Source of the DNA: Candidatus Solirubrobacter pratensis
Lineage (GTDB): Bacteria > Actinomycetota > Thermoleophilia > Solirubrobacterales > Solirubrobacteraceae
Length of the DNA: 64,000 nucleotides
NCBI RefSeq assembly: GCF_000425945.1
Contig: NZ_AUEK01000008.1
Location: forward strand, 124,001-188,000
Direction: 5' to 3'
Below, piece by piece: positions 21,201 to 46,724 of this stretch. The notes below the pieces were generated by a model that had not been told where the DNA came from, searched no databases, and saw only the letters and a list, made by a program, of their open reading frames with translations. How positions within the stretch are numbered: position 1 is the first letter of the stretch; the number at the start of each line of letters is the position of its first letter. Position numbers and translations under genes: made by a program.

Positions 21201-21201
21201 G

Positions 21202-30176: not shown

Positions 30177-31511
30177 ATGAGGCGGCTGCTGGTGTGCCTG
30201 GCGCTGCTGGCCGCGGGCTGCGGCGGCGGAGCGCATCGCGCCGCCGCCACCGCGAAACCCGCCGCGCTCGAGCGCGACGTCCCGCGGCTGAGCCAGGTCG
30301 CGCCGTGCACGAGCATCACGCGCGCCAGCTGCGCCGTGCTGCAGGTGCCGCTCGACCACAGCGGGCGCACGGCGGGAACGCTGGACCTGTGCGTGGCCAT
30401 GTCGGGACCCGACGGCGCGCCGGTGCTCGTCTTCCTCAGCGGCGGCCCTGGCCAGCCGGGGCTCCCGTTCCTCGCTACCGCGCGCAGCCGGCTGGGCGCG
30501 ATCGCCAAGCGCTACCGGCTCGTCGTGATCGACCAGCGCGGCACCGGCCGCGGCGCGCTCCGCTGCCCGGCCCTGCAGCGGCAGATGGGGGCATCGGACC
30601 TGGCCCGGCCGACGGCCGCGGCGGTGCGCTCGTGCGCGGCGCGGATCGGCGAGAAGCGGCGCTACTTCACCACCGGCGACACGGTCGCCGACCTCGAGCT
30701 GCTGCGCCAGGCGCTCGGCGCCGGCAAGCTCGCGCTCGACGGCGTCTCCTACGGCACCTACGTCGCCGAGCGCTACGCGCTCGCGCACCCCGCCAACGTC
30801 AGCCGGCTCGTGCTCGACTCCGTCGTGCCCCACGCGGGCGTGACGCTGATGTCGGAGGTCTCGATGCAGGCGACGCCGCGCGTCCTGGGCCCCGCGGCGA
30901 CGCGCGACCTCGCCGCCGTCGTCCGCTCGCGCCACGACGGCCCCGAGCTGCTCGACATGCTCACCAGCCTCTCGATCGGGCGCCCGCACCTGGGCGTCGC
31001 CGTGCGCGCGCTCCGCAGCGCCGCGGCCGGGGACCGGCGGCCGCTGGACGGGCTCGCCGCCGCCGTGCTGCGCGGCGAGCGCGCGTTCAAGGCCTCCGAT
31101 CTCAGCCAGGGCCTGCACGCCAGCACGCTGTGCGCCGACACGCGCGCTCCCTGGGGCGGCGAGGACGCGCCGGCGGCGGGACGCGCGCAGAAGCTGCGCA
31201 CGGCGGCCGCCGGCGTGGACGTGGGTCCGTACGACCGCGAGACGGCGAGCGCGAACGGCATCGCGCTCCAGTGCCTCTACTGGCCCACGACCCCGGTCGC
31301 GCCGCCCCGGCTCGCCGCGAACCTCCCCGCCGTCCCGACGCTGCTGCTCGCCGGCACCAAGGACCTCTCGACCCCGCTCGAGTGGGCGCGGGCGGAGCGG
31401 GCGCACGCGCCGCGCGGGAAGCTCGTGGTCGTGCCCGGCGCGGGACACTCGCTGCAGACCCAGGGCGTCGCGGCGGTCAAGCGCGCGCTGGCGGCCTTCC
31501 TAACGGGTTGA
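30177..31511 (+). CDS. Alpha/beta-hydrolase lipoprotein (TAP-like)
   Basis: Exported serine hydrolase of 444 residues, resembling tripeptidyl aminopeptidases and proline iminopeptidases of actinobacteria. ATG 30177 gives a lipoprotein signal MRRLLVCLALLAAGCGGG. Features are the oxyanion region LSGGPGQPG, DQRGTGRG, the nucleophile elbow DGVSYGTYVAERY, and a C-terminal TAP-like part with LLLAGTKDLSTP and the catalytic histidine in VVPGAGHSLQTQG. A TACGGT box ends 7 nt before the ATG. The frame extends further upstream but lacks a signal. Its end overlaps the SMP-30 gene by 12 nt. Confidence 0.87.
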   Translation: MRRLLVCLALLAAGCGGGAHRAAATAKPAALERDVPRLSQVAPCTSITRASCAVLQVPLDHSGRTAGTLDLCVAMSGPDGAPVLVFLSGGPGQPGLPFLATARSRLGAIAKRYRLVVIDQRGTGRGALRCPALQRQMGASDLARPTAAAVRSCAARIGEKRRYFTTGDTVADLELLRQALGAGKLALDGVSYGTYVAERYALAHPANVSRLVLDSVVPHAGVTLMSEVSMQATPRVLGPAATRDLAAVVRSRHDGPELLDMLTSLSIGRPHLGVAVRALRSAAAGDRRPLDGLAAAVLRGERAFKASDLSQGLHASTLCADTRAPWGGEDAPAAGRAQKLRTAAAGVDVGPYDRETASANGIALQCLYWPTTPVAPPRLAANLPAVPTLLLAGTKDLSTPLEWARAERAHAPRGKLVVVPGAGHSLQTQGVAAVKRALAAFLTG

Positions 31512-32318
31512 CGCCCCCTCGACGCCGACGTCGACGCGGGTCAGGTGCCAGCGGCCGAGATTGGCCATGAACAGCTCGGTCCCGCGGAACGCGCAGTTGG
31601 TCGGATGGCACAGCACGTGCGCGGTCGGATCGTCGAGCAGCAGCTCGAGCGCGCCCGTGGCAGGGTCGCACCTGTAGACGCGCGACGGCTCGTAGCACGC
31701 GATGTACAGCAAGCCCCCGGCGTCGAGGGCGATGCCGTCCGGCACGCGCTCGATGCCCTCGACCACCGGCTCCGGCGCGCCACCGGCGATCGGGATCCGC
31801 ACGACCCGCTGCGCCCATGTCTCCACGACATAGAGCGCGTCGCCGCCGGGCTCCAGCGCCATCCCGTTGGCGAAGTGCAGCGGTCCCTCGTGCCACAGCT
31901 CCGCCGCGCCGGTCTCGAGGTCCACCCGCCAGATCCCCGGGCCGGCCGGATCCCGGCTGTCGGACACCCACAGGCAGCCGCGCCTGGCGTCGACGACGGG
32001 GAAGTTCGGCGTTCGCATCCCCTCCGCGAAGCGCGAGATCTCGCCACTCGCGAGGTCGAGCCGGAAGACCGCGCGGTGCGCGAGGTCGCACGAGTACAGC
32101 GCGCCCTCGCCGTCGAGCGCCACGCCGAGCGTGAAGCCGCCCGTCGTCGCGACCTGCTCGATCGCCGAGCCGTCGGGAGCGACGCGATAGAGCTCGCCGC
32201 GGTCGCCGCCGCACCAGGCGGCGCCCTCGGCGTCGAAGGCGAGGCACTCCGGATGGCTCAGGCGCGGCTCGCTCGTCGTGCCGTCGAAGAAGATCGACGC
32301 CCGCTCGAGCGCGATCAC
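31500..32318 (-). CDS. SMP-30/gluconolactonase family protein
   Basis: Six-bladed beta-propeller lactonase of 272 residues. The metal-site glutamate lies in SHPECLAFDAEG near the N-terminus, with further family segments GGFTLGVALDGEGALYSCDL, GPLHFANGMALEPGGDALYVVET (metal Asn) and RVPDGIALDAGGLLYIACYEPSRVY (catalytic Asp). It probably opens a sugar lactone to the acid after the adjacent SDR has oxidised the sugar (inference from operon). GTG start in a GTGA overlap with the SDR. It is the last gene of the sugar-acid array. Confidence 0.87.
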   Translation of the reverse strand: MIALERASIFFDGTTSEPRLSHPECLAFDAEGAAWCGGDRGELYRVAPDGSAIEQVATTGGFTLGVALDGEGALYSCDLAHRAVFRLDLASGEISRFAEGMRTPNFPVVDARRGCLWVSDSRDPAGPGIWRVDLETGAAELWHEGPLHFANGMALEPGGDALYVVETWAQRVVRIPIAGGAPEPVVEGIERVPDGIALDAGGLLYIACYEPSRVYRCDPATGALELLLDDPTAHVLCHPTNCAFRGTELFMANLGRWHLTRVDVGVEGASTR

Positions 32319-33046
32319 TCCGGCAGCTCCACGGACAGGCCCGCGAGCAGCCCGCCGTCGACGCGCAGCTCCGCGCCGGTGATGGCCGACGCGTCGTCGC
32401 TTGCCAGGTACGCGATCGCCGCGGCGACCTCGTCGGCCGACGCCACGCGGCCGAGCGGGTGCATGCGTCCCCACGCGGCGACCTGGTCCTCGGCGCTCCC
32501 GTCGCCGCGGAAGCGCTCGGCCGCCCAGCGCAGCATCGGCGTGTCCACCGAGCCCGGGGCGACGGCGTTGACCCGGATCCCGTCGCGCACGTGGTCGAGC
32601 GCCATGGCGCGCACGAGCGCGCTCAGGGCCCCTTTGCTCGCCGTGTAGGCGGCCACGCCGGTCTGCGACGCGGTCGCCTGGACCGACGAGACGATCACGA
32701 TCGCGCCCCCGCCGCGCTCGCGCAGCGCGGGCACCGCGGCGCGCGCGACCAGGTAGGCGCCGCGCACGTTGACGCCGAAGACCTCGTCCCACGTCTCCGG
32801 AGCGGTCGTCTCGACCGTCCCGTAGCGCTGCACGCCGGCGGTGTAGACGAGCACGTCGAGCGTCCCGCACCGCTCCACGAGCGCCTGCGCGTACCCCTCG
32901 TCGCGGACGTCGCCGGCCAGGCCGGCCTCCGGCTCGCGGCCGCCCGTGATCACCGTCGCGCCTTCGCGCGCGAGCCGCTCGGCGGCGGCCCGGCCGATGC
33001 CGAGCGTGCCGCCGACGACCAGCGCGGTCTTGCCCTCGAATCTCAC
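32315..33046 (-). CDS. Short-chain dehydrogenase, likely sugar dehydrogenase
   Basis: NAD(P)-dependent SDR of 243 residues. The cofactor motif is VVGGTLGIGRAAAERL (TGxxxGIG type with GGTLGIG), the structural NxG region is VYTAGVQRYG, and the catalytic triad is S in VIVSSVQA with Y-x3-K in YTASKGA. The ending ITGAELRVDGGLLAG is the family norm. Beside a lactonase, dehydratase and KDG-type kinase, a role in oxidising a free aldose is the best guess. GTG start; 4-nt overlaps on both sides. Confidence 0.88.
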   Translation of the reverse strand: MRFEGKTALVVGGTLGIGRAAAERLAREGATVITGGREPEAGLAGDVRDEGYAQALVERCGTLDVLVYTAGVQRYGTVETTAPETWDEVFGVNVRGAYLVARAAVPALRERGGGAIVIVSSVQATASQTGVAAYTASKGALSALVRAMALDHVRDGIRVNAVAPGSVDTPMLRWAAERFRGDGSAEDQVAAWGRMHPLGRVASADEVAAAIAYLASDDASAITGAELRVDGGLLAGLSVELPE

Positions 33047-34152
33047 GGAACCAGCGGCGGGAGCGTAACCTCGACGAAGCGGGGCCGGTAGATCCGGACG
33101 TCGCGCATCAGGTCGTCGAAGGCGAAGCTGTTGACGTTGTAGGAGAGGACGAGCTTGCCGCCGCGGCTGAGCTGGGGATGGAGGCGGGCGTCGTACGTGA
33201 AGAGGTTCCCGCCCGTCTCCGGCGTCCGGTAGACGGTGGTGGGTCCGCTCCACGGGCCGGTGAGGCTGCAGGCGCTGTAGGCGACGATGTCGGCCGGCAG
33301 CAGGCTGCGGTTGTCGAACGTGACGAGCACGTAGGCGTCGCCGACCTTCTGGATCCCCACGGCGGTGCCGATGCCCTGGAACAGCGGCGCGGAATCCTTG
33401 AAGTGGATCGACCAGCCGCTGCCGGTCCAGTACTCCCAGCGGCCGAGCAGGTCGCCCTGCTTGGCGCGGGCGAGCATGAGCGCGTTGGCCTTGTTGCCGT
33501 AGACGTACGAGTACCCGCCCTCGTGGACGACCGTGGAGCCCCAGGTGACGCCGTCGGCCGAGACGATCTGGCGGACGGCCTCCAGCTTCAGGGAGGGCAG
33601 CGAGAACGTGGCGATCGCGTTGCCGAGCCACTCGAAGCCGAAGACCTCGTCGGAGTACATCCAGTACTTGTTGACGAAGACGTGCAGCTTGCCGCCGTCG
33701 ACGGTCGCGCCGTTGGCCCAGTACCACGAGTCGCCGACCTGCTCCTTGCCGTCGGACTGGTGGCCGTCATCGGTCTGGATCAGCGTCTCGGGATGCCGCG
33801 GCGTGCCGCCGGTCAGCGTGTCGGTCAGCCGGTCGCCGCGCTGGAGCACGATCGAGTTCTGGATGAAGTCCTCGTTGTCGCGCGAGTGGTCGGGATTGAC
33901 CTTGTCGAGGAAGGTGTCGGCGAACACCCACGCGGTGCGGCCGTCGGGCAGCGGCACCGACGCCGTGTTGTCGGCGCCCGTCCAGTCGTCGAGCCGCCGG
34001 TTGGAGTCGCCGTAGGCGGCGAACATCTGATTCAGGGCGACAGCGGGGCGCGCCTGCGCCGGCGTGGATGGATCGAGGCGACAGGACGCCGCCGAGGCGG
34101 TCGCCGGCAGCGCGAGCAGCGCGACGACGATGGACGGGACCGCGAATCTCAT
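33043..34152 (-). CDS. Secreted beta-propeller-like protein (DUF4185/DUF5005-like)
   Basis: Exported protein of 369 residues with a clear signal peptide (MRFAVPSIVVALLALPATASAA). The body reads GRTAWVFADTFLDKVNPDHSRDN, WYWANGATVDGGKLHVFVNKYW, TVVHEGGYSYVYGNKANALML and ETGGNLFTYDARLHPQLSRGG. These resemble DUF4185/DUF5005 proteins and the GH117/GH43-type five-bladed propellers. It may be an extracellular glycosidase for the same substrate as the importer. It overlaps pfkB and SDR by 4 nt each, so it is within the operon. Confidence 0.7.
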   Translation of the reverse strand: MRFAVPSIVVALLALPATASAASCRLDPSTPAQARPAVALNQMFAAYGDSNRRLDDWTGADNTASVPLPDGRTAWVFADTFLDKVNPDHSRDNEDFIQNSIVLQRGDRLTDTLTGGTPRHPETLIQTDDGHQSDGKEQVGDSWYWANGATVDGGKLHVFVNKYWMYSDEVFGFEWLGNAIATFSLPSLKLEAVRQIVSADGVTWGSTVVHEGGYSYVYGNKANALMLARAKQGDLLGRWEYWTGSGWSIHFKDSAPLFQGIGTAVGIQKVGDAYVLVTFDNRSLLPADIVAYSACSLTGPWSGPTTVYRTPETGGNLFTYDARLHPQLSRGGKLVLSYNVNSFAFDDLMRDVRIYRPRFVEVTLPPLVP

Positions 34153-35033
34153 ACCGGCTCTCCTTGGGTTGCGTATGCGAGATGGCCCGTGCCGCCCTGG
34201 CCGCCGAGCGAGCGGGCGGCCGCGACCACGCCTTCGCGCGCCGCCTCGACGACCGTGGCGCCGCGGGCCAGGTGCGCGGCCAGGGTGCCCGCGAAGACGT
34301 CGCCCGCGCCGGTCGCGTCGACCAGCCGCTCCGCCGGCGCCGCCGGGATCTCGGCCGTCTCGGCGCCGTCGCGGACGAGCACGCCGTCGGGGCCGCACGT
34401 CACGGCGGCGGCCTGCGCGCCGAGCGCGAGCACCGCCTCGGCGGCGGCGCGCGGTGTGTCCCCGAGCCCGTCGGCGGGCCATGACGGCGTCACCACGCGG
34501 GCGAACGGGGCGATCCTCGCCAGCGCCGCCCGCGCGCGTTCAGGCGTCGTCAGGCGCGGGCGGAAGTTCGGGTCGTAGACGAGCAGCGGCGCGCGCTCGG
34601 CGGCGCGCTGAACCGCGGCGGCCGCGCCGGCGGAGATCGCCTGCGCGATGCCGCCGGCCAGCAGCACTCGATGCTCGGGGAGCCGCTCGACGTCATCCGG
34701 CGAGAGCGTGGAGGCGGCGCTGCCGCGGCGCACGTAGACGAACTCGCGCCCGCCATTGAGGTCGGCGACGCTGAAGTAGACGCCGTTCGGCGCCGCCACC
34801 CGCGCGGCGAGCGAGGTGTCGACGCCGAGCCGCTCGACGTGGCGCAGCAGCGCCGTCCCCAGCTCGTCGTCGCCGACCTTGGTCAGCAGCGCCACCGACG
34901 CGCCCGCGTCCGCCGCCGCCGCGGCGGCGTTGAGCGCGTCGCCGGAGAACGACAGCGTGGCCGGCACGCCGGCGGCGAACGGCACGGGCGAGGACACCTC
35001 CACGAGCACCTCGCCGATGACGAGGACGTCCAT
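34149..35033 (-). CDS. PfkB-family sugar kinase (2-keto-3-deoxygluconate kinase-like)
   Basis: Cytoplasmic ribokinase-family kinase of 294 residues. The first motif is FSGDALNAAAAAADAGASVALLTKVGDDELG and the second DATGAGDVFAGTLAAHL contains the catalytic Asp and anion hole. The opening MDVLVIGEVLVEVSS is typical of KDG kinases. In this array it would phosphorylate the 2-keto-3-deoxy acid produced by the dehydratase (inference). Two copies of a 92-bp repeat separate it from the upstream GH38-type gene. Confidence 0.87.
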   Translation of the reverse strand: MDVLVIGEVLVEVSSPVPFAAGVPATLSFSGDALNAAAAAADAGASVALLTKVGDDELGTALLRHVERLGVDTSLAARVAAPNGVYFSVADLNGGREFVYVRRGSAASTLSPDDVERLPEHRVLLAGGIAQAISAGAAAAVQRAAERAPLLVYDPNFRPRLTTPERARAALARIAPFARVVTPSWPADGLGDTPRAAAEAVLALGAQAAAVTCGPDGVLVRDGAETAEIPAAPAERLVDATGAGDVFAGTLAAHLARGATVVEAAREGVVAAARSLGGQGGTGHLAYATQGEPV

Positions 35034-35051
35034 GGTCACCCGCGCACCCCG

Positions 35052-35143
35052 GGGGCGGGGGTTTCGCCCCGGCGGGAGTTTCGCCCCCTGGGCGAACACT
35101 CCCAGCGAAACGAGGCCGCAGGCCGAGGCTTCGCCCTCATCGG
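35052..35143. repeat. 92-bp repeat, copy 1 (tandem, period 101 bp)
   Basis: Copy 1 of a GC-rich repeat containing nested inverted repeats: GTTTCGC...GCGAAAC outside CTGGG...CCCAG, then a GGCC-rich arm. It differs from copy 2 at two positions near its start. The structure resembles an extragenic palindromic (REP-like) element. It lies between pfkB and the GH38-type gene. Confidence 0.85.
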
Positions 35144-35152
35144 CGCGCCCCC

Positions 35153-35244
35153 GGGGCGGGAGTCTCGCCCCGGCGGGAGTTTCGCCCCCTGGGCGAACAC
35201 TCCCAGCGAAACGAGGCCGCAGGCCGAGGCTTCGCCCTCATCGG
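35153..35244. repeat. 92-bp repeat, copy 2 (carries the GH38-type stop codon)
   Basis: Copy 2 of the same element, starting 101 bp after copy 1. The stop codon and last residues of the upstream minus-strand GH38-type gene (stop at 35238-35240) fall inside it, so the element inserted at, or was recruited as, the gene's 3' end. It may also act as a terminator or mRNA-stability hairpin within the long operon. Confidence 0.85.
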
Positions 35245-37817
35245 ACGCGCAGGCTCACGAGCGCGCGGGCGCCGAGCAGGACCGCGACGGCGCCGTCGCG
35301 CAGCTCGAGCGACTCGCCGTCGTGCTCGAGCGGCGAGGTCAGGTGCACCGACGCCGGCGGCGTGGCGAAGCTGAGCCGCACCACCCGTGCCTCCCCGCGC
35401 TGGTCGTGCAGGCGCGCCACGATCCCGTCGCCGTCCTCGGCGGGCTTGAGCGCGAGCTCGACGCCGTCGCCGTCGAGCTCGAGGAACCCGCCTCGCTCGT
35501 CGCCGCGCCGCAGCCAGTCACGCAGCACCAGCGGCGGCGTCGCCGCCTCGGCCGCGAACCGCGCCGCGGCCGCGTCGTCGCACGCGCCGGCGTGCGTGGT
35601 GAGCCGATAGCGCAGCGGGATCTCGCCCTCCTGGAACGCGCGGAAGTTGACGCTCCAGTGATTGTTGAGCGCCCACGAGTACACGGCCGGCCCGTCAGGC
35701 TGCAGCTCGTACGCCGCCCGGCCGGTCGTGATGCCGCCGAGCTGCGCGAGCGGCGCGTCCAGCGGCGCGAGCGTGACGCCGCGCTCGCCGTCGGAGACGT
35801 CGACCCAGCGCCGCAGCGGGTACCAGTCGCGGACCGTGCCGTTGAGCTGGTCGATGTCCGGCGTGCACGCGACGCCGTTGAGGTCGGCCCGGAAGCCGGG
35901 CGCGCCGAGCGCGAACGGGAAAGCGATGTAGACGGACTCCGGCTCGGGCTGCGCCAGCTTGTCGAGCGTCCAGTCGATCTCGAGCGCGCGGCGGTCGCTC
36001 TGGAGCGTGTAGCGGCAGGTCGCTCCGCGCACGCCCTCGGCCTCGATCGCGACCGCGATCGAGGCGCGGCCGCGTGAGATCTCCGGCTCGCCCACCGTGA
36101 CCCGCGCGGGCGCGCTTCGCCGCAGCGGGACGTCCTGCGGCCAGACGCCGAAGTCCCACTCGGAGAAGTCGTCGGCGAACAGCGCCCGGCGGTCGCCCTC
36201 GACGCGCTCGTATACGTACTGCCCGAGCCGGTGGCCGTCCTGCTCGCCCGCGAAGTCGTGGCCGAGCTCCTTGTCGAGCCATGACCGCAGCCCGCCGGTC
36301 GCCGGATCGACCTCCACCCGGTAGTGCGCGTTCTCGATGACGCCGGGGGCGACCGCGAGATCCGCGGCGGCCGGCTCGCCGTCGAAGCGCACCCACGCCC
36401 AGCCGCACGGCGGGAGCTCCGCGCGCGCCACGCGCACGTCCTCGAGGCTGCGCGCGCCGCCCCACGGGACGTCGCGCGGGAAGAACATGTCGAGCATCCC
36501 ACGCGGGGCGCCGCCCGCGCGCACCTCCGGCTCCTCGACCAGGACCCTGCGCGCATGCGGCAGCGTGTTGATGACGAGCCACTCGTCAGCCCCGCTGTGC
36601 GGGAACGCCTCCTCGTAGCTGAGATCGCCGAGGTTGAAGCGCGACTCCGCGCCGGGCTCGCCCTCGCGCCGCGCAAGCGCGCCGGCGGCGCGCGCGAGGA
36701 CGTCGTGCGTCTCCATCGCGGCGCCGTACGCGTAGCCCGACTTGCGGTTCCACTGCGCCTTCGTGAACAGCGAGTCGGGCCGGGCGACCGACGCGAACGC
36801 CCCCCAGGTGTGCTCGTCGTAGAGCGACATCTGCTCGTACAGCGCGTCGAGGCGCTCGGGGTCGCCTGTGCCGGTCCAGGCGGCGATCGCCTCGGCGGCG
36901 CCGAGCAGCTCGTGCGTGGAGCGGTTGAGGCCCGTCTCGTACGCGCTCGAGGCGGCGCCGTCGGACCACCAGTCCGTCCAATCGCCGCGCCAGGTCGGCA
37001 GCTCGTGCCGGCGCAGCACGTCGCCGAACGCGGCCGGAGTGGTCAGCTCGATGCGCGGCGTCCTCCCCGCCGCGTTCCACTCCGCCACGAAGTCGCTCAC
37101 GCGCCGCTCGGGCGGGCCGTTGTCGACGCGCATCGGGTGCGTGGCCTCGACGTAGAGGAAGTCGTACGGGTAGTCGGGATCGCTCTGCACTCGCCGCACG
37201 AGCGCGGCGAGGTCGCGTTCCACGTAGCGCGGGTCGGCGAGCTTGGCGACGCTGCGGCCGAACAGGTAGTGCAGCCCGTTCCAGCACAGCAGCCGCCCGC
37301 CGGCCGGCCCCTCCCACCAGAACGCTCCCGGCAGCGGCTTCGGCGCCCGCCCGCGCATCTGGTTGATCGCGAGCGTGAGCGTGTCCACGCCGATCGCCGG
37401 CAGCAGGTCCGCGAACAGCCACGAGATGCCGTTGACGTCGTCCTGCATCGCGCTGCGAATGCGAACGCCGCGCTCGCGCAGCCGCCGCACGGGCATCAGG
37501 CTGCGGACCATCTGCTCCACGCCGAGCAGCGGCGTGAGGTTGTACTGCATGGCGGCGACGTCCATCGCGCCGCTCGCGTTGTGACGCAGGAACCGGTCCA
37601 CCTCGCCTTCGGAGGCGGTGGCGAGGTACTTCTCCAGCGGCCCGGTGACCTCGCACGTCCAGCGGAAGCGGGCCTCCTCCGGGTGGTCCGCCGTCGCCTC
37701 GATCACGTCCATCGCCTGCGAGATGAACTCGGCGTGCTGGCGGAAGCAGACGTCCTGGTGATCGGTGAACCCGATGTCCGTGTGCGTGTGGTTGGCGACG
37801 TAGAGCGTCTCGATCAT
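35238..37817 (-). CDS. GH38/DUF5054-type glycosidase (alpha-mannosidase-like), copy A
   Basis: Large cytoplasmic protein of 859 residues without a signal peptide. The N-terminal barrel carries the metal motif [13 protein letters not shown] (H12, D14) and a candidate nucleophile Asp in SAMQDDVNG (126-127), as in GH38 alpha-mannosidases and the DUF5054 group. The remaining metal histidine is in DEHTWGAF. The C-terminal 450 residues are beta-rich, like GH38 C-domains. It is coupled to the dehydratase gene by ATGA. It is distantly related to the second copy at 39920-42835. Exact linkage specificity is unknown. Confidence 0.75.
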
Positions 37818-39923: not shown

Positions 39924-42835
39924 GCCAGCGCGATCGTCAGGAGCTCGCCGGGCAGGATCGCCGTCGCGCCGCGCGGGCGCTCGAGGTGATCGCCGACCGC
40001 GCGCGCGGTGACGGGCAGGTCGGGGAACGCGGCGTCGAGCTCCACGGGTCCGGCGGCGCGGGAGCGCACCTGCGCGACGAGCCCGCCGGCGCGCCCCGCG
40101 CTGATCGCGATCAGCTCGATCCCCTCCGGAAGCGTGCAGAGCGTTCCCCGTTCGGGGATGCCGTCCGCCGCCCGCGGCGAGGACAGGATCGCGGTCAGCG
40201 GCGGCCCGGCGCCGCCGACGGCGTACGCGAGCTCGACCTCGCCGCCCTGCGACTGCGGGAAGTTCGTGTCCCAGCCGTTGTTCATCGCCCACGAGAAGAC
40301 CGTCCCCGGCTCGCGCTGCGTCGTCAGCGGGAACGGCGCGTACGGCAGGTGGATCCCGCCGACCTGGACCAGCGGCGCGTCGAACGTGGCGAGCACGGCG
40401 TCGTCGAGCGCGATCCAGTCGCGGATCGCGCGCATGTGCGGCGCCGATCCGGGCACCGTGGGATCGCCCTGCGCGTGCACGCCTCCGGTGAGCTCGTAGC
40501 GCACGCGCGGGTTCTCGCGCGCGAACGGGAAGGCGAAGAAGACCGCCTCCTTGTCGGTGACGGGCGCCTTGTCGACAACGTTGGAGATCTCGAGCCGGCC
40601 GGCGCCGTGCACGAGCCGGTAGGTCACGGTCAGCGCGTGCGCGCCGGGCGCGCGCAGGCGCACCGTCGCGCGCTCCTGCAGGGCGCTGCTCGTGCGCTCG
40701 ACCAGCACGCCGTCGCCGGCGACGTCGCGGGACGCGAGCAGCCACAGGCCGGGCTCGCCGATCCGGCTGGAGAGGTGATTGACGCGGGACGCCGTCGCGT
40801 AGCGGTCGTAGACGTACTGGTTGCCGAACGCGCTGTCGGGGTTGACGAGGTCGCCGAGCGACGTGAGGCAGCCGCTGCGAGCGTCGAGGCCGGCGCTGAG
40901 CCCGGCGGACTCGAGCGCCGCGGGGTCGCCCGGCACGGGGTCGCGCACGCCGGCCCGGCCGCCGGCGAGCGCGTAGCGGGCGAACCCGTACGCGGGGACG
41001 TCTCGCGCGAGGAAGCGCAGCCGCCGCCCGCGCGGCCGGTAGTCGGCGTGCGGCTGCGGCGCGAGCTCGCACGGCACGCGCTCGCCGCTCGCCACATCGA
41101 CGACGGTGAGCGATGCGCTCAGCGGCACGCGCGTCTCCGGCACCAGCAGCTCGACGGCGTCGGTGCGCGCGACCCCGGACGGGTTGAAGACGAGCACGCC
41201 GGCCAGCGCGCCCGCGTGGCGCGGGACATGCGCCGCGAGGCGGGCGTGCGCGCTCTCGAGCAGCGCGCCGGCCGTCTCGCCCGCGGCGTGCGCGCGCGCC
41301 GCCTTCCACTGCCACTGCAGCGCGCCGGCGTCGACGTGCTCCAGCCGGTCGCGCCAGGGATTGGCCGCGCCCCACGTGTGCTCGTCGAAGAGGCCCAGGT
41401 CCTCGTACGCCCGCTCGACCTCGGCGGGCCAGCCCGGCGACGCGCCGGGGGTGGCGGGGGCCGGCGAAGCGCCGGAGGCGGCCGCGCCGCGCGGATCTCC
41501 GGCCGCCTCCAGCGCATCCGCCCACGCGTGCAGCGTCTGCGCCGTCCGCACGTCCCGCTGCGCCCGCCTGGCGACGGCGACCTCCCGCGCGGCCGAGCCG
41601 ATGCCGTCGGCCCACCAGTCCGTCCAGTCGCCCTCGTAGGTCGGGATCGAGTCGCCCAGCCGCTTCTGCGCCGCCTCGAAGAAGTCGCGGTTCGTCGCCA
41701 TCGTGAGACGCGGATACGCCCAGCTCGCGTTCCACTCGCGCACGATCTCGGCCGGCACCGGGCTCGGCGCGGCGTTGTCGGCGAACGCGCTCTGCACGCG
41801 CAGGTGCAGCAGCTCGTGCTCCTGCGGCGCGCGCGTGAGCTCGGTGCCGGCGGCGATCCCGGTGAGCCAGCCGGTGGTGCCCGCGCCGTACGGGTACGGC
41901 CGCGTCGCCAGCGCGTGCAGGTACGCCGGCAGGTACTCGAGCGTCGCCTCGTAGCCTTCGGCGAGCCCGGCGAGGTTGCCCTCCATGTACGCGATCCCGT
42001 GCGGGCTGTCGGTGTGCCACACGAGCAGGCGGCGCCCGCTCGGGGCGCGCCACCAGAACGGGCGGCGCAGCGACTGGCCGCCGTTGAGGTGCGGCACGGA
42101 GCGGCCCGCGTAGTTGTGGGCGACCGACAGGTAGCGCACGTCCGCCGCCGCCAGCAACTCGCACAGCGCGAGCGTCGCGCCCGGCACGTCGGTCTGCATC
42201 GCGCTGACGATCTCGATCCCGAAGCGCTCGCGCAGCGCCTGGGCGGGCCGCAGCGTGCGCGCCAGCTCGTCCAGCGAATACGCCTCCGTGTGCATCGTGT
42301 ACGGCAGCGCGCAGACCTCGATCCGGCGCTCGCGCACGCGGGCGAGGAACGCCTCGCGGTCGGCGCCCGGCCGCGTCGCGAGCCAGCGCGTGAGCGGCAG
42401 GTTGGCCTCCACGTTCCAGCGGAAGCCGTCGTCCTGGGTCGTGAGGTCCAGCGCCGCGTCCAGATACGCGAGGTGCTGGGCGAGCACGAGCGGCTGGTGA
42501 TCGGTGTAGCCGATGTCGAGGTGGGAGTGATGGATCACCGAGACCTCCCACTTGCGCTGCGGCGCCAGGACGACCCGATGCTCGACGCCGTCGAGCGTCA
42601 CCGCGAACGCGCGGGGGGCGTCGAGCTCCGGCACGAACAGCAGGCCCGGGCCGTCGGTGCGGTCGAGCACGGTGCCCTCGTGCGCGATCGTGGCCGCGCC
42701 GGTGACGCGGACGGCCTGCTCGAGCCGGCCGCCGCGCGAGCGGAACAGCGGCAGGCCGCAGACGGGCCCGGCGTACGCGGCGAGATCCTCGCGCGGCGGG
42801 ACGTCATGCGGCGGGTCGGCGATGGCGCGGCTCAT
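39920..42835 (-). CDS. GH38-type glycosidase (alpha-mannosidase-like), copy B
   Basis: Cytoplasmic protein of 971 residues. An N-terminal domain of about 95 residues precedes the catalytic barrel, which opens with VIHHSHLDIGYTDHQ (H105, D107) and carries the candidate nucleophile D216 in SAMQTDVPG. DEHTWGAANPW supplies the later metal histidine, and MNNGWDTNFPQSQGG near the C-terminus mirrors the [10 protein letters not shown] of copy A. A Pro/Ala-rich insert near 41430-41490 resembles a linker. The two copies are diverged paralogues and may attack different linkages of one oligosaccharide. Confidence 0.78.
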   Translation of the reverse strand: MSRAIADPPHDVPPREDLAAYAGPVCGLPLFRSRGGRLEQAVRVTGAATIAHEGTVLDRTDGPGLLFVPELDAPRAFAVTLDGVEHRVVLAPQRKWEVSVIHHSHLDIGYTDHQPLVLAQHLAYLDAALDLTTQDDGFRWNVEANLPLTRWLATRPGADREAFLARVRERRIEVCALPYTMHTEAYSLDELARTLRPAQALRERFGIEIVSAMQTDVPGATLALCELLAAADVRYLSVAHNYAGRSVPHLNGGQSLRRPFWWRAPSGRRLLVWHTDSPHGIAYMEGNLAGLAEGYEATLEYLPAYLHALATRPYPYGAGTTGWLTGIAAGTELTRAPQEHELLHLRVQSAFADNAAPSPVPAEIVREWNASWAYPRLTMATNRDFFEAAQKRLGDSIPTYEGDWTDWWADGIGSAAREVAVARRAQRDVRTAQTLHAWADALEAAGDPRGAAASGASPAPATPGASPGWPAEVERAYEDLGLFDEHTWGAANPWRDRLEHVDAGALQWQWKAARAHAAGETAGALLESAHARLAAHVPRHAGALAGVLVFNPSGVARTDAVELLVPETRVPLSASLTVVDVASGERVPCELAPQPHADYRPRGRRLRFLARDVPAYGFARYALAGGRAGVRDPVPGDPAALESAGLSAGLDARSGCLTSLGDLVNPDSAFGNQYVYDRYATASRVNHLSSRIGEPGLWLLASRDVAGDGVLVERTSSALQERATVRLRAPGAHALTVTYRLVHGAGRLEISNVVDKAPVTDKEAVFFAFPFARENPRVRYELTGGVHAQGDPTVPGSAPHMRAIRDWIALDDAVLATFDAPLVQVGGIHLPYAPFPLTTQREPGTVFSWAMNNGWDTNFPQSQGGEVELAYAVGGAGPPLTAILSSPRAADGIPERGTLCTLPEGIELIAISAGRAGGLVAQVRSRAAGPVELDAAFPDLPVTARAVGDHLERPRGATAILPGELLTIALA

Positions 42836-43656
42836 GCTTGCCTCCCGGCGGTCGTCAGCGTCAGGCCGCTCAGCAGGTAGCGGCCGAGCGCGAGGAAGAG
42901 CGCGATCGTCGGCAGCGAGCCGATCAGCGCGCCGGCCATGATCACCGGCGGTCCTGCGCTCGAGGACTGGCCCTGGAGCCCGACGAGGCTCGGCATCACC
43001 GGGCGGATGCCGTCCGAGGTCGAGAGCACGAGCCCGAACATGAAGTCGTTCCAGATCCACGTGAACTGGAAGAGCACGAGCACCGCGATCGGCCCGCGCG
43101 CGAGCGGCATCAGGATCCGCCACAGCACCGCCCACGACGACGCGCCGTCCAGCCGCGCCGCCTCCTCCACCTCGCGCGCGACCGTCGAGAAGAATCCGCG
43201 CAGGACGAACAGGCAGAACGGCGTGGCGATCGCGGAGTAGAACAGCGCCATCCCGACCCAGGTGTCGTAGAGCCCCGTGTCCGTGTACATCTGGAACAGC
43301 GGGATCAGGTACATCTGGAACGGGAACAGCGTGCCGCTGAAGACCAGCAGGAACCACCAGAACCGCCCGCGGATCTCGAGCCGAGTGATGGCGTAGGCGC
43401 CGAGCGCGCCGCAGAAGATCGCGACCACGGCGCCGACGAGCCCGTAGCTGAGGCTGGCCAGGAAGCCCGGGCCGAGCCCGGCGCTGTTCCACGCCGTCTT
43501 GATGTTCCCGAACAGGTGGAGCGGATCGTGCGGCAGCGACCACTGCGAGCTGGCCGCGTACTCGCCGAAGGACTTCATCGGCGTGATCACCAGCAGGCCC
43601 AGCGGCACGATCCACGCCGCCGCCAGCAGGACCACGCCCGCCTTGGTGACTCTCAC
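42832..43656 (-). CDS. Sugar ABC transporter permease (MalG type), second importer
   Basis: CUT1 membrane subunit of 274 residues with about six helices. The EAA loop is EVEEAARLDGASSWAVLWRILMPLARGP. GTG start in a GTGA overlap with its partner permease, and an ATGA overlap with the GH38-type gene B, linking transport to intracellular hydrolysis. No ATPase gene is included. Confidence 0.9.
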   Translation of the reverse strand: MRVTKAGVVLLAAAWIVPLGLLVITPMKSFGEYAASSQWSLPHDPLHLFGNIKTAWNSAGLGPGFLASLSYGLVGAVVAIFCGALGAYAITRLEIRGRFWWFLLVFSGTLFPFQMYLIPLFQMYTDTGLYDTWVGMALFYSAIATPFCLFVLRGFFSTVAREVEEAARLDGASSWAVLWRILMPLARGPIAVLVLFQFTWIWNDFMFGLVLSTSDGIRPVMPSLVGLQGQSSSAGPPVIMAGALIGSLPTIALFLALGRYLLSGLTLTTAGRQA

Positions 43657-44606
43657 TGGTTCACCTCCACGCGCCGGAACATCGAGCGCAGGTAGAAGAC
43701 CGACAGCAGCAGCACCACGAGTGTCAGCACCACCGCGACGCTCGCCCCGTAGCCGATGCTGAAGCTCACGAAGCTCTCGCGGTACATCGTCACCGCGAGC
43801 GTCTCCGAGGACCGGTACGGGCCGCCCTGGGTCATCACCCAGATCAGATCGAAGACCTTGAAGTTGTTGATCATCGTGATGGCCACCACGACCGCCGTCA
43901 TGGGCCGCAACAGCGGGAACGTGATGTGCCAGAACAGGCGCAGCCCGTGCGCGCCGTCGACGCGCGCCGCCTCGATCGGCTCGCGCGGGAGGTTCTGCAG
44001 CCCGACGAGGAACAGGATCATCGCCGGCCCCAGTCCCTGCCACATCGCGGCGAAGATCATCGCGAAGGTGTTCACCGGCGGCTCGGCCAGCCAGCGCGTG
44101 GTGAGCGAGTCGAGCCCGATCGTGTTCAGCAAGCTCGTGAGCAGCCCGTTGTCAGGGTTGAACACGTAGAACCAGATCACGCCGACGGCGGCGCCGGAGA
44201 GCGTCGCCGGGAGGTAGAACACGCGCTTGAGCCAGTCGCCCGCCCGCATGTTCGACAGCACGATCGCGAGCAGCAGGCCGAGCCCGACCTGCAGCACCAG
44301 CGCGCCGATCACCCAGTAGACCGTGTTGCGCACCGAGGTCCGGAACGCCGGGTCCTTCACCAGCCGGCTGAAGTTGTCCACGCCGACGAACGAGCCGGCG
44401 CTCGTGCCCGTCGCATCGGTGAATGCCACCCACACCGTCTTCACCGCCGGGTAGAGCAGGAAGACGCCGACCAGCGCCACCATCGGCAGCAGGTAGAGGT
44501 AGCCGGTCGCGCGCCGGCGCCTGCGCCGGCGGCGGGCGACCTTGGTCGCCACGTGCTCGCGGGGAGCGGCGAGCCGCGGCGGCGCCTCGACGACGGGAGC
44601 GGGCAC
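43653..44606 (-). CDS. Sugar ABC transporter permease (MalF type), second importer
   Basis: CUT1 membrane subunit of 317 residues. A long Arg-rich cytoplasmic leader (VARRRRRRRRATGYLYLL) precedes the first helix. The EAA loop is EPIEAARVDGAHGLRLFWHITFPLLRP. GTG 44606 lies 2 nt after the substrate-binding protein stop. A longer open frame upstream is antisense-like shadow of that gene. Confidence 0.9.
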   Translation of the reverse strand: MPAPVVEAPPRLAAPREHVATKVARRRRRRRRATGYLYLLPMVALVGVFLLYPAVKTVWVAFTDATGTSAGSFVGVDNFSRLVKDPAFRTSVRNTVYWVIGALVLQVGLGLLLAIVLSNMRAGDWLKRVFYLPATLSGAAVGVIWFYVFNPDNGLLTSLLNTIGLDSLTTRWLAEPPVNTFAMIFAAMWQGLGPAMILFLVGLQNLPREPIEAARVDGAHGLRLFWHITFPLLRPMTAVVVAITMINNFKVFDLIWVMTQGGPYRSSETLAVTMYRESFVSFSIGYGASVAVVLTLVVLLLSVFYLRSMFRRVEVNQ

Positions 44607-44608
44607 CG

Positions 44609-45916
44609 TCAGGAGACGCTCGCCCAGCTCTGATCCGCCTGCTTCTGGATCGTCTGTAGGAAGGCGGCCGGGTCGCCGGGCTTGAGCATGAACTTGCAGA
44701 ACTGGTCGACCGCCACCTCGACGATGTCGTGCGGCGTCGCCTCCCAGTAGCGGTTGAGCAGCTTGTGGCCGCCGGCCTTGATCGCGTCGTCGATGCCCTT
44801 GTCGACGGGGTTGGACGACGGCACGTCCGAGCGCGCGGACGTGAACCCGGTGACGTCGATCCACTTCTGCTGGCCCGCCTTGGACGCGAACCACTCGGTC
44901 GCCTTCAGCGCGTCCTCGCGCCGCTTGCCCCTGGCGGCCACGCACCACGGGCCGGCTTCGAAGATCAGGTTGTTGCCGGCCGAGGCGTCGACGTTGGGCG
45001 TGATGAACGTGCCGTAGTCCTCACCGCCCTTGATGCCGGCGGCCTCGAGCGTCGGCTCGAACCAGCCGCCCCAGGTGACCATCGCGATCTTGCCCTGCTT
45101 GAAGTACTGCGGGAAGTTGTTGGCTCCGCTGCCGATGGTGACCGCCGAGGGGTCGCTGAAGTACCCCTTCTTGATCATGTCGCCCCACAGGTTCATCACG
45201 TCGGCGACACCCGGATCGGTGTACTTCGCCTTGCCGTTGACCAGCGCGGTGTACAGCGCGGGGTCCTTGCGCACGAGCAGCTCCTGGAAGTACACGAAGC
45301 CCGGCCAGCGGCCGTCGATCGTGGCGGCCAGCGGCGTCACACCCGCCGCCTTGAGCTTGTCGCACACGCCGGTGAACTCTTCCCACGTCTTCGGCACGTC
45401 GAGCTTGTGCTTCTCGAACGTGTGCATGTTGTAATAGGTGACCCAGTACGCGACGTTCAGCGGCACGCCGTACTGCTTGCCGCCGAAGGTGAACGCGTCG
45501 CGCAGGCCCGCGCTGTAAGCCGAGCCGTTCTTCTGCCAGATCGAGCTGACGTCGGCGAGCATGCCGGCGTCGACGAGCTCCTTCATCAACCAGCCGGACC
45601 ACCACGAGAACATGTCGGTGACCTTGGGCGTGTTGCCGGTGGTCTTGATCGCGGCCTGGTAGGTCGTCGTGTCGGAGTACTCGACCGGGTTCCAGCCGAC
45701 CGCGCCGGCGGTCTTCGCCGCCTTGCCGGCCGCCGCGAACCAGTCCTTCCAGGCGATCTTGTCGTTGGTCATCTTCAGCATCGCGCCGCCGCCGGCCTTG
45801 GCGCCTGAGTCCGACCCGCAGGCGGCCAGCAGCGACCCGAGCATCGAGGTGCTCAGCGCCGCGGCCCCGCCGCGCTGGATGAACGCCCTGCGGGAGATCT
45901 CCCCGGTTGGTTGCAT
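44609..45916 (-). CDS. Sugar ABC transporter substrate-binding lipoprotein, second importer
   Basis: Extracellular solute-binding protein family 1, 435 residues. The signal begins MQPTGEISRRAFIQRGGAAALS and ends at LLAACGSDS. It holds both a twin-arginine-like SRRAFIQ and a lipobox (LAAC), so Tat export before lipidation is likely. ATG 45916 is preceded by GGAGGAG. Family segments include FSWWSGWLMKELVDAGMLADVS and YGVPLNVAYWVTYYN. It is the first transport gene after the GntR regulator. Confidence 0.9.
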   Translation of the reverse strand: MQPTGEISRRAFIQRGGAAALSTSMLGSLLAACGSDSGAKAGGGAMLKMTNDKIAWKDWFAAAGKAAKTAGAVGWNPVEYSDTTTYQAAIKTTGNTPKVTDMFSWWSGWLMKELVDAGMLADVSSIWQKNGSAYSAGLRDAFTFGGKQYGVPLNVAYWVTYYNMHTFEKHKLDVPKTWEEFTGVCDKLKAAGVTPLAATIDGRWPGFVYFQELLVRKDPALYTALVNGKAKYTDPGVADVMNLWGDMIKKGYFSDPSAVTIGSGANNFPQYFKQGKIAMVTWGGWFEPTLEAAGIKGGEDYGTFITPNVDASAGNNLIFEAGPWCVAARGKRREDALKATEWFASKAGQQKWIDVTGFTSARSDVPSSNPVDKGIDDAIKAGGHKLLNRYWEATPHDIVEVAVDQFCKFMLKPGDPAAFLQTIQKQADQSWASVS

Positions 45917-46007
45917 GTGGCTCTCCTCCACTTGTCGACCCTTCGAAGGCGTGTGCGACCCGACCCGCGCACGGCGCGGGCCTCGCAGACCTGCAGCTCT
46001 GCCGTCC

Positions 46008-46724
46008 TTACCGCTCTGGCGGAGCGGCCCGGGCGGCGATCACCGTCCGGACTCCCTCCAGGTGGCGCTGCATCCGCTCGGACGCGAGCGCCGGATCGTG
46101 CGCCTGGATCGCCTCCAGGATCGCCGCGTGCTCCTCGTGATCGTGCACGCGGTCGGCGTACAGGCGCAGGATCTCCATCTGCTCGGGCCCGTAGAGGTCG
46201 AGCAGCGTGTCGATCACCTGGGCAAGCACCGAGTTGCCCCCGCAGCGGGCGACGCCGCGGTGGAAGCCCAGGTTGACGGCGCTGAGCCGCGCGTCCTCGC
46301 GGCCCTCGAGCAGTTGCCCGGCGTCGTCGATCAGCTTTGCGAGCTCGGCGATCGCCGCCTCGTCCGCGTGCGCGGCGAGCCCGGCGAGGTGCGGCTCGAT
46401 CAGCAGCCGCGCGTCGAGCAGGTCGAAGATCGTCTCGATCTTCAGCCGCCCGGGATACGGGTTCGGAAGCACGACGCGGCGGCCCGCGTGGCGCACGTAG
46501 ACCCCCGATCCGTGCCGCATCTCGACCACCCCGACGGCCTGTAGGCGCCGCAGCGCCTCGCGCATCGTCGGGGTCGCGACGGCGAAGCGGCCGGCGAGCG
46601 CCTGCACGGTCGGCAGCCGGTCGCCGGGCGCCAGCCCGTCGCGCTCGATCATGTCCAGGATCTGCTCGGTCAGCATGTCCGAGCCGCTCGGACGGACGAC
46701 GAAAGCCTCGCTCACGGAATTCAT
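46008..46724 (-). CDS. GntR/FadR-family transcriptional regulator
   Basis: Regulator of 238 residues. The winged HTH is APGDRLPTVQALAGRFAVATPTMREALRRLQAVGVVEMRHGSGVYV, followed by an all-helical FCD-type ligand domain (DLLDARLLIEPHLAGLAA, NLGFHRGVA, DHEEHAAILEAI). FCD regulators usually sense organic or sugar acids, which fits the sugar-acid pathway encoded downstream. It precedes the transporter by 91 nt on the same strand, and a strong inverted repeat overlaps its start codon. Confidence 0.9.
   Translation of the reverse strand: MNSVSEAFVVRPSGSDMLTEQILDMIERDGLAPGDRLPTVQALAGRFAVATPTMREALRRLQAVGVVEMRHGSGVYVRHAGRRVVLPNPYPGRLKIETIFDLLDARLLIEPHLAGLAAHADEAAIAELAKLIDDAGQLLEGREDARLSAVNLGFHRGVARCGGNSVLAQVIDTLLDLYGPEQMEILRLYADRVHDHEEHAAILEAIQAHDPALASERMQRHLEGVRTVIAARAAPPER

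What the first reader, a model, noticed from the sequence alone, without database searches (positions are those of the whole stretch)
31500..46724. Fifteen-kilobase GH38-plus-oxidative sugar-acid catabolic array
Thirteen minus-strand genes, most joined by 4-nt overlaps, combine a GntR/FCD regulator, CUT1 importer, two diverged GH38/DUF5054-type glycosidases, an epimerase-like protein, a glucarate-dehydratase-like enzyme with all catalytic residues, a PfkB kinase, an SDR and an SMP-30 lactonase. Known families give a complete logic: import, hydrolysis, oxidation to lactone, ring opening, dehydration to a 2-keto-3-deoxy acid, phosphorylation. Only an aldolase is missing. I know of no described pathway with exactly this make-up; the substrate and the pairing of GH38-type enzymes with an oxidative route are unexplained.
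Basis: partly seen in the sequence, partly recalled or inferred. Interest (0 to 1): 0.7.

Follow-up and report, generated by a model that had tools for sequence, protein, structure and literature searches.

The report
Predicted mannose-oxidising operon in soil bacterium
A twelve-gene operon most likely lets this soil bacterium take in mannose-containing sugars, cut off the mannose and burn it by an oxidative route, using an enzyme type not previously assigned to that job; versions of the same gene set, with a shared control site in actinobacteria, recur in distantly related bacteria.

Summary
The gene array is real: twelve co-directional genes (not thirteen), seven of eleven junctions being 4-nt overlaps. 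Best reading: uptake of alpha-mannosides, GH38 hydrolysis to D-mannose, oxidation (SDR, SMP-30 lactonase) to D-mannonate, dehydration to KDG by a glucarate-dehydratase-like enolase, then kinase and KDPG aldolase. The 'missing' aldolase exists elsewhere in the genome (Edd-Eda). Enolase and GH38 occur in the same 3 of 151 order genomes. A palindromic operator precedes 29 of 31 regulator homologues. Against: xylan-type loci in Bacillota carry the enolase together with UxuA; one genome has GH38-SDR-SMP-30 without a detected enolase; a GH183-like secreted protein could point to D-arabinose. No activity was tested. Nearest precedent: oxidative mannose catabolism proposed for Thermoplasma and haloarchaea.

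The parts
31500..32318 (-). g39: SMP-30/gluconolactonase-family protein; predicted D-mannonolactonase
   Evidence: PF08450 73.8 bits, cut-off 26.3
32315..33046 (-). g40: classical SDR; predicted NAD(P)-dependent D-mannose (aldohexose) 1-dehydrogenase
   Evidence: PF13561 171 bits; solved relatives 3vtz (rank 1, E 8.7e-49) and 2dtd (rank 3, E 6.1e-41), called glucose 1-dehydrogenase (related) in the PDB; that 2dtd is T. acidophilum AldT is recalled
33043..34152 (-). g41: secreted-looking five-bladed propeller, GH183 (DUF4185/DUF5005)-like glycosidase
   Evidence: DUF4185 43.6 bits (cut-off 39.5), DUF5005 40.9 (29.6); model pLDDT 87.8; Z 33.6 to 4hbs, 28.7 to EndoMA1 8hhv; D61 and D79 invariant, 18 apart; signal-peptide-like start seen by eye
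34149..35099 (-). g42: PfkB-family kinase; predicted KDG kinase (start may be 22 codons further in, as the first residues lie in a 101-nt tandem duplication)
   Evidence: PF00294 130 bits; best NCBIfam KDG/KDGal kinase 105 bits, below its cut-off 400; repeat
35238..37817 (-). g43: GH38-b, predicted alpha-mannosidase, no signal peptide seen
   Evidence: GH38N, GH38C, GH38C2 over cut-off; model matches GH38 alpha-mannosidases over the full length, Z up to 26.2
37814..39034 (-). g44: enolase-superfamily, glucarate-dehydratase-subgroup enzyme; predicted D-mannonate dehydratase
39015..39923 (-). g45: DUF4432, aldose-epimerase-like; predicted sugar mutarotase
   Evidence: PF14486 77.4 bits, cut-off 32.5; epimerase relation recalled
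39920..42835 (-). g46: GH38-a, second GH38 protein with extra N-terminal region
   Evidence: GH38N 54.6 bits; H105, D107, D216, H486 invariant in 21 sequences
42832..43656 (-). g47: CUT1-type ABC permease
   Evidence: 79% identical to the C. arvalis permease in the same place
43653..44606 (-). g48: CUT1-type ABC permease
   Evidence: 89% identical to the C. arvalis permease in the same place
44609..45916 (-). g49: sugar-binding protein of the importer
   Evidence: PF13416 96 bits
46008..46724 (-). g50: GntR/FCD regulator; likelier start is the in-frame GTG at 46715-46713
   Evidence: PF07729 78.4 and PF00392 61.9 bits; sequence
46718..46734 (-). operator-like AAGTGATTAGATGAATT (family consensus AAGTGATTAGATSACTT), overlapping a -10-like TTAGAT (46728-46723); -35-like TTGACG at 46752-46747, 18-nt spacer (promoter boxes read by eye)

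Best explanation
A self-regulated operon for alpha-mannoside catabolism by an oxidative, semi-phosphorylative Entner-Doudoroff route. A secreted GH183-like enzyme frees oligosaccharides; a CUT1 ABC importer takes them in; two GH38 enzymes release D-mannose; DUF4432 interconverts anomers; the SDR oxidises D-mannose to mannonolactone; SMP-30 opens it to D-mannonate; the glucarate-dehydratase-like enolase dehydrates D-mannonate to 2-keto-3-deoxygluconate (KDG); the PfkB protein phosphorylates it to KDPG; a KDPG aldolase encoded elsewhere (the Edd-Eda pair on the same contig) gives pyruvate and glyceraldehyde 3-phosphate. The GntR/FCD protein binds a palindrome over its own promoter. Shown: gene content, conservation, active-site residues, predicted folds of g41 and g43, operator conservation. 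Inferred: every activity, the substrate, the flow through Eda.
For: (1) Hole-filling: in G392 (L143) the enolase (61% to g44) lies in one run with ABC-importer genes, UxaE (462 bits, cut-off 27), UxaC (505, cut-off 387), D-mannonate oxidoreductase (375, cut-off 281), a KDG-kinase-like PfkB and a DHDPS-family aldolase-like gene, the last two below their models' cut-offs; UxuA and ManD were not found in that genome, so the enolase is the only candidate found for D-mannonate to KDG. Its partner on the tree, L144 (94/66), sits in SMP-30 - SDR - enolase order, and that SDR's best NCBIfam model is the PRK06398 aldose dehydrogenase (259 of 341 bits). (2) In 74 of 74 homologues K205, K207, D235, N237, E260, N289, D313 and H339 of GudD are kept; N27 is His, T103 Leu, N341 Ser, R422 not Arg in this alignment. 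(3) Stereochemistry (textbook): read from its reacting end D-glucarate has the C2-C3-C4 arrangement of D-mannonate. (4) SDR: 3vtz and 2dtd are ranks 1 and 3 of the solved relatives; AldT (2dtd, recalled) oxidises mannose to mannonolactone (PMC6901390, passages). (5) GH38-b model: the top 40 Foldseek rows are GH38 alpha-mannosidases. (6) A D-mannose-isomerase-like AGE protein (244 bits, cut-off 600) stands beside the enolase in S. meliloti. (7) C. arvalis has PfkB-EDA-DUF4432 beside the same cluster; own genome has Edd-Eda and GH92 genes.
Against: No activity measured. 13 of the 28 genomes or records searched (27 of them known to carry the enolase) also hold UxuA, among them Alicyclobacillus, some with xylan-type loci, where the enolase is not needed for D-mannonate. 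Around some homologues stand GH10, GH67, a YjhG/YagF D-xylonate dehydratase and an alpha-KG-semialdehyde-dehydrogenase-like protein, which suits a pentose. G371 (rated 98% complete) has GH38 - SDR - SMP-30 together but no enolase was found there. In C. arvalis a ManD-like gene (241 of 550 bits) lies about 12 kb beyond the PfkB-EDA pair, which may therefore serve another cluster. Kinase within 9 kb of the enolase in only 4 of 90 loci, EDA in 2 of 90. PfkB and SDR score below the relevant NCBIfam cut-offs. All 53 SDRs counted carry Gln at the position recalled as Glu84 of AldT. A conserved Arg (YDRDP motif) lies three residues past the aligned R422 position, so its loss depends on the alignment. 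g41's closest characterised relatives cut D-arabinan, not mannan. L143 is only 61% identical and falls apart from the other 72 rows on a tree whose root is unreliable.
Confidence: 0.57

Rival explanations
1. Pentose version: the same route acts on D-arabinose, D-lyxose or D-xylose. The secreted GH183-like enzyme attacks D-arabinan (for example of mycobacterial cell walls), and the enolase is a pentonate dehydratase making 2-keto-3-deoxypentonate.
For: g41 is DUF4185/GH183-like with both catalytic Asp positions. Homologous enolases sit beside GH10/GH67, YjhG/YagF, a GucD-like dehydrogenase or FAH proteins (7 of 90 loci with the ~384-aa type, 3 of 90 with the G113 type); FAH enzymes end known pentose routes (PMC6336799, passages). 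UxuA coexists in some genomes.
Against: KDG-type kinase plus EDA in C. arvalis and a Chloroflexi locus suits a hexonate, if the pair belongs to the pathway; D-arabinonate has the wrong C3 configuration for a GlucD-like site (textbook); the L143 operon points to D-mannonate; the GH38 fold is that of alpha-mannosidases. D-lyxonate is not excluded by stereochemistry.
Confidence: 0.17
2. Another hexose: D-glucose, D-galactose or a modified sugar is oxidised to its aldonate and dehydrated to KDG or KDGal.
For: The SDR also scores on a glucose 1-dehydrogenase model (178 bits, cut-off 215); KDG and KDGal kinases are the same models.
Against: Gluconate and galactonate do not match the L143 pathway hole; the GH38 enzymes of known activity are alpha-mannosidases; C2 configuration is wrong for the His303-type base (inference).
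Confidence: 0.13
3. Uronate/aldarate pathway: the dehydratase is a true glucarate (aldarate) dehydratase and the SDR a uronate dehydrogenase.
For: Best NCBIfam model is glucarate dehydratase, 157 bits.
Against: 157 against a cut-off of 828.7; positions recalled as holding the second carboxylate (N27, T103, R422) changed in 74 of 74 in this alignment; no known uronate-releasing family in the array.
Confidence: 0.05
4. A loose neighbourhood of sugar genes without one pathway.
For: Three genomes of the same genus lack GH38-b and enolase, so it is accessory DNA; gene content around the enolase varies; in the phylum sample only 2 of 9 genomes with the GH38 profile also have the enolase.
Against: Nearly the same gene order in C. 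arvalis and, in part, Nonomuraea and Actinomadura; shared operator, also before the separate DUF4185-DUF4432-SDR operon; 4-nt overlaps.
Confidence: 0.03

Closest known systems
Oxidative mannose metabolism proposed for Thermoplasma acidophilum (AldT + mannonate dehydratase + KDG aldolase; PMC6901390, passages read)
   Same: Aldohexose dehydrogenase of the same SDR branch, dehydration of mannonate to KDG
   Different: Archaeal, non-phosphorylative, lactone opens by itself; here a lactonase, a kinase, GH38 enzymes, an importer and a regulator are joined. Whether Ta0753 belongs to the same dehydratase subgroup was not checked.
Semi-phosphorylative mannose route proposed for Natronoglomus mannanivorans (PMC10963439, passages read)
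   Same: Glycosidases clustered with mannonate dehydratase; KDG kinase and KDPG aldolase finish
   Different: Beta-mannanases (GH5, GH26, GH2) instead of GH38; annotated ManD; archaeon
Glucarate dehydratase subgroup of the enolase superfamily (E. coli GudD; 3vc5, 3vdg, 4it1)
   Same: Catalytic Lys pair, His-Asp dyad, metal ligands (roles recalled)
   Different: Far below the GudD equivalog score; positions recalled as holding the distal carboxylate changed
GH38 alpha-mannosidases (S. pyogenes 2wyh, Ams1, E. faecalis 5kbp, Bl_Man38A-C)
   Same: Full-length fold of the g43 model, zinc and nucleophile positions
   Different: 11-17% identity to the GH38 entries listed; no significant hit in the PDB by sequence with g43 alone, E 1e-6 to Ams1 with a 21-row profile
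GH183 endo-D-arabinanases (EndoMA1, DgGH4185b; PMC10509167, PMC10115798, passages read)
   Same: Fold (Z 28.7 to EndoMA1, 20.4 to M. tuberculosis AraH2) and Asp pair 18 apart
   Different: 16% identity to EndoMA1; no GH172/GH116 partner among the families of the array; substrate unknown

Membership tests
GH38 | Pfam GH38 N-terminal domain over its cut-off | tested here: met
   39.0 and 54.6 bits against 25
GH38 | Zinc ligands and catalytic nucleophile (motif positions recalled) | tested here: met
   H105, D107, D216, H486 of g46 invariant in 21 of 21 aligned proteins
GH38 | Fold of solved GH38 alpha-mannosidases | tested here: met
   g43 model: Z 26.2, 724 aligned, rmsd 3.3 to 7dd9; top 40 Foldseek rows all GH38; g46 not modelled
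GH38 | Alpha-mannosidase activity | not testable with these tools
   No DUF5054 row at E<=0.001 for g43 or g46
Glucarate dehydratase (GudD) | Catalytic residues | tested here: met
   74 of 74 homologues
Glucarate dehydratase (GudD) | NCBIfam equivalog TIGR03247 cut-off | tested here: not met
   157.2 of 828.7 bits
Glucarate dehydratase (GudD) | Residues holding the second carboxylate (recalled: N27, T103, R422) | tested here: not met
   His, Leu, and no Arg in 74 of 74 in a sequence alignment; a conserved Arg three residues further on was not excluded structurally
D-mannonate dehydratases UxuA / ManD | Membership in PF03786 or NF043051 | tested here: not met
   g44 82.9 bits on ManD, cut-off 550; no UxuA row for g44. 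It may do the same reaction without being a member.
Thermoplasma-type aldohexose dehydrogenase (PRK06398) | NCBIfam cut-off | tested here: not met
   199.6 of 341 bits
Thermoplasma-type aldohexose dehydrogenase (PRK06398) | Closest solved relatives are of this type | tested here: met
   3vtz rank 1, 2dtd rank 3; their origin is recalled
GH183 | DUF4185 over cut-off | tested here: met
   43.6 against 39.5, over profile positions 165-295 of 309
GH183 | Catalytic Asp pair 18 residues apart (D170/D188 in DgGH4185b) | tested here: met
   D61 and D79 invariant in 19 of 19; residues from PMC10115798; not superposed on EndoMA1
GH183 | Endo-D-arabinanase activity | not testable with these tools
   -
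Semi-phosphorylative Entner-Doudoroff route | KDG kinase | tested here: inconclusive
   g42 best on KDG/KDGal kinase but 105 of 400 bits
Semi-phosphorylative Entner-Doudoroff route | KDPG aldolase in the genome | tested here: met
   Eda 245.6 bits, cut-off 156, beside Edd 929.5, cut-off 708

The most novel reading that the evidence does not exclude
A third, so far unassigned family of D-mannonate dehydratase (besides UxuA and ManD), evolved from the glucarate-dehydratase fold, is the hub of a horizontally spread set of bacterial mannose and uronate pathways; in actinobacteria it is wired by one GntR/FCD operator to GH38 enzymes and to GH183-like secreted enzymes with a new specificity, perhaps directed at the mannan-arabinan glycans of neighbouring mycolic-acid bacteria.
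Probability: 0.35. Interest if true: 0.7.

Novelty: new variant of a known kind. Interest (0 to 1): 0.5.

Why it matters
It would give a function to a large, well conserved branch of the enolase superfamily (67-82% identity to g44 in the 80 loci kept of 252 found) present in Actinomycetota, Chloroflexota, Bacillota and Pseudomonadota, including Sinorhizobium megaplasmids; add a bacterial counterpart to the archaeal oxidative mannose route; and give divergent GH38 and GH183-like proteins a testable physiological setting with a defined operator.

Tried and rejected
Substrate ideas considered and set aside: D-arabinose through GH183, D-xylose or L-arabinose through the xylan-type loci, 4-O-methylglucarate through GH67; kept as rivals where the data allow. 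DUF4432 literature gave nothing useful; none of the 20 papers listed of 356 holds DUF5054. Sulfo-Entner-Doudoroff was considered because such genes (recalled) lie beside the Shinella locus; rejected, different dehydratase family. A tree with outgroups is not usable at the root: two of four outgroup rows were probably read in a wrong frame and all four sit on very long branches; only relations inside the enolase family are used. My gene caller failed on 15 of 82 loci of lower G+C, so the context lists cover at most 67 of 82 and one search covers 75 loci; I repeated the count by tblastn on all 90 loci, whose figures differ for some families (GntR 33 of 90 against 47 of 75, owing to an identity threshold; SMP-30 32 of 90 against 15 of 75, owing to an added rhizobial probe). 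Low-G+C GH38 loci (L128, L136-L138, L146) could not be annotated. The operator occurs only once in the own genome at up to 2 mismatches (one further site at 3, not examined), so it did not reveal a kinase or aldolase regulon; nor did the four extra sites that I read. GH76 was not found in G000, G042, G113. Print searches for an oxidative bacterial mannose pathway or a mannonate dehydratase in this subgroup; the two archaeal proposals surfaced.

Full report
OBSERVATION. Own gene calls put twelve minus-strand genes between 31500 and 46724. Pfam and NCBIfam name ten of them: SMP-30 (g39), SDR (g40), DUF4185/DUF5005 (g41), PfkB (g42), GH38 (g43), MR/MLE enolase-superfamily enzyme closest to glucarate dehydratase (g44), DUF4432 (g45), GH38 (g46), SBP_bac_8 (g49), GntR/FCD (g50); the two permeases (g47, g48) rest on their match to C. 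arvalis. Seven of eleven junctions are 4-nt overlaps.

DISTRIBUTION. GH38-b was found in 3 of 151 genomes of the order, and the enolase in the same three: the window's genome (rated 96% complete, 6% contaminated), G042 and G113; three other genomes of the same genus lack both. The identical triple by chance has probability 1.8e-6. There GntR, binding protein, two permeases, GH38-a, enolase, GH38-b, an ABC ATPase, SDR and SMP-30 stand in nearly the window's order, without the DUF4185 gene, and a plus-strand group PfkB - KDPG aldolase - DUF4432 meets them end to end. A ManD-like gene (241 of 550 bits) lies about 12 kb beyond that group, so the PfkB-EDA pair could serve another cluster, though it shares a run with the DUF4432 gene that the window has inside its operon. 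G113 has GH38-b, SMP-30, enolase, SDR, a second SDR, DUF4432 and another type of importer, with an FAH-family-like gene at the end of the group (family seen by eye).

A scan of one genome per species with the enolase alignment found 252 relatives; the best 80 were kept, 67-82% identical to g44, in several phyla. With one Nonomuraea kept, 74 loci: 42, 32, 16, 14, 6, 4, 2. All were chosen by the enolase, several contigs are short, and only the best 80 of 252 were seen. In 396 genomes of the phylum the enolase profile rang in 17 at E<=1e-60, of which 8 (own included) exceed 330 bits, and the GH38 profile in 9 at E<=1e-30. Only 2 of those 9 (own and G503, where the two genes share a 3-kb contig) also have the enolase. 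Five of the other seven are small, lower-G+C genomes of one family; G371 has GH38 - SDR - SMP-30 side by side without a detected enolase; G309 has a GH38 fragment beside other sugar genes.

WHAT THE DEHYDRATASE DOES. Aligned to E. coli GudD, 74 of 74 family members keep K205, K207, D235, N237, E260, N289, D313 and H339, and also H32, Y150, F152 and H368. N27 is His, T103 Leu, N341 Ser, and at R422 there is no Arg. The roles of N27, T103 and R422 in holding the second carboxylate are recalled, not from a call, and a conserved Arg (YDRDP) lies three residues past the aligned R422, so this point needs a structure. With that caveat the chemistry should be that of glucarate dehydratase on an acid with one carboxylate. 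Turned end for end, D-glucarate shows at its reacting carbons the left-left-right pattern of D-mannonate C2-C4 (textbook Fischer projections); D-lyxonate shares it, D-arabinonate, D-gluconate and D-xylonate do not.

The strongest argument is a pathway hole. In L143 (genome G392, same phylum, unnamed) a 61% identical enolase follows ABC-importer genes and is followed by UxaE tagaturonate epimerase (462 bits, cut-off 27), UxaC (505, cut-off 387), D-mannonate oxidoreductase (375, cut-off 281), a KDG-kinase-like PfkB (194 of 440) and a DHDPS-family aldolase-like gene (118 of 206 on dapA). That set makes D-mannonate and should consume KDG. UxuA was not found in G392 nor ManD at E<=1e-30; the genome is rated 100% complete, 5% contaminated. 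Its tree partner L144 (94/66) has SMP-30 - SDR - enolase, so both ways of making the acid occur with near relatives. Reservations: both are 61-62% identical to g44 and fall apart from the other 72 rows (support 92/90) on a tree whose root is unreliable.

OTHER STEPS. The SDR's solved relatives are led by 3vtz (8.7e-49) with 2dtd third (6.1e-41), named glucose 1-dehydrogenase (related) in the PDB; that these are Thermoplasma aldohexose dehydrogenases is recalled. PMC6901390 (passages) states that AldT of T. acidophilum oxidises mannose to mannonolactone and that its gene adjoins the dehydratase gene. The GH38-b model (pLDDT 79.2) matches GH38 alpha-mannosidases end to end: the top 40 Foldseek rows are all GH38, Z up to 26.2 over 724 residues. 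Across 21 aligned GH38-a/b proteins the zinc and nucleophile positions are invariant. The 'missing' aldolase: three PF01081 matches exist; the best, about 229 kb away on the same contig, adjoins a phosphogluconate dehydratase (929 bits, cut-off 708). The genome also has GH92-family genes (4 matches).

REGULATION. A 17-bp palindrome, AAGTGAT-TAG-ATCACTT, lies upstream of 29 of 31 regulator homologues (up to 3 mismatches) against 2 of 553 random windows. Twelve Nonomuraea loci have a second site (2 mismatches), 33-38 bases before the called start of the separate DUF4185-DUF4432-SDR operon in 11 and 130 in the other. In 13 whole genomes 22 sites were found at up to 2 mismatches, none for the reversed control; of four outside the known loci, two precede orphan binding proteins of the same family, one lies between two diverging genes of which one is a 1352-residue protein with a DUF5005/DUF4185 domain and Fn3 repeats, one precedes a regulator homologue. 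The window has one site, one mismatch, at 46718-46734 over a -10-like box with a -35-like box 18 nt upstream, read by eye; the own genome has one other site, with 3 mismatches. This ties g41-like proteins to the system.

THE SECRETED PROTEIN. g41's model (pLDDT 87.8) is closest to 4hbs (Z 33.6, uncharacterised) and EndoMA1 (Z 28.7); the next rows are near 21 and include M. tuberculosis AraH2. D61 and D79 are invariant, 18 apart, as D170/D188 of DgGH4185b (PMC10115798, passages). It is very likely a retaining glycosidase; whether it cuts D-arabinan is open.

RESULTS AGAINST. 13 of 28 genomes or records searched (27 known to carry the enolase) also hold UxuA, among them Alicyclobacillus and Paenibacillus; around some enolases of Bacillota and Chloroflexota are xylan genes (GH10, GH67), a YjhG/YagF D-xylonate dehydratase and a GucD-like dehydrogenase. 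There the enolase may serve another acid. An FAH protein of the ~384-residue type lies near it in 7 of 90 loci. The kinase score is low. All 53 SDRs counted have Gln where AldT is recalled to have Glu84. Hence 0.57, not more.

KNOWN OR NEW. The route resembles the mannose pathways proposed for Thermoplasma (PMC6901390) and Natronoglomus (PMC10963439, passages). New here: a bacterial, alpha-mannoside-directed version with a dehydratase of another subgroup than UxuA or ManD, a lactonase, a GH183-like enzyme and a conserved operator. Searches found no description of it in the held library; subscription papers are mostly not held.

Noticed in passing
35036-35237: Two tandem copies (94% identical) of a 101-nt G+C-rich unit lie between g43 and g42 and run into the annotated start of g42.
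   Followed up: partly
L093:11244-13340, L059:11265-13331, L100:11215-13245: A 676-698-residue protein after the enolase in Jiangella and Kribbella loci without GH38-a; the one tested (L093) matches no Pfam family at its cut-off (weak GH94 supersandwich); possibly an undescribed glycosidase family.
   Followed up: partly
L186:8658-12716: A 1352-residue Nonomuraea-genome protein with a DUF5005/DUF4185 domain, Fn3 repeats and a phospholipase-A2-like end lies next to an operator copy.
   Followed up: partly
L185:8048-9319 and L187:8716-9966: Orphan sugar-binding proteins of the same family, each preceded by the operator.
   Followed up: partly
L136, L137, L138, L128, L146: Five small, lower-G+C genomes of one family carry the GH38 protein without the enolase; L136 has a DUF4432-like fragment.
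   Followed up: no
   Followed up: partly
L103 (Shinella sp. HZN7 plasmid): Beside the enolase group lies a set (TSUP transporter, alpha-glucosidase, SDR, SMP-30, aldolase, IlvD-type dehydratase) that looks like a sulfoquinovose sulfo-ED cluster (identity recalled).
   Followed up: no
18354-22485: Another run of four minus-strand genes in the window, some of whose first residues look like a binding lipoprotein and permeases.
   Followed up: no
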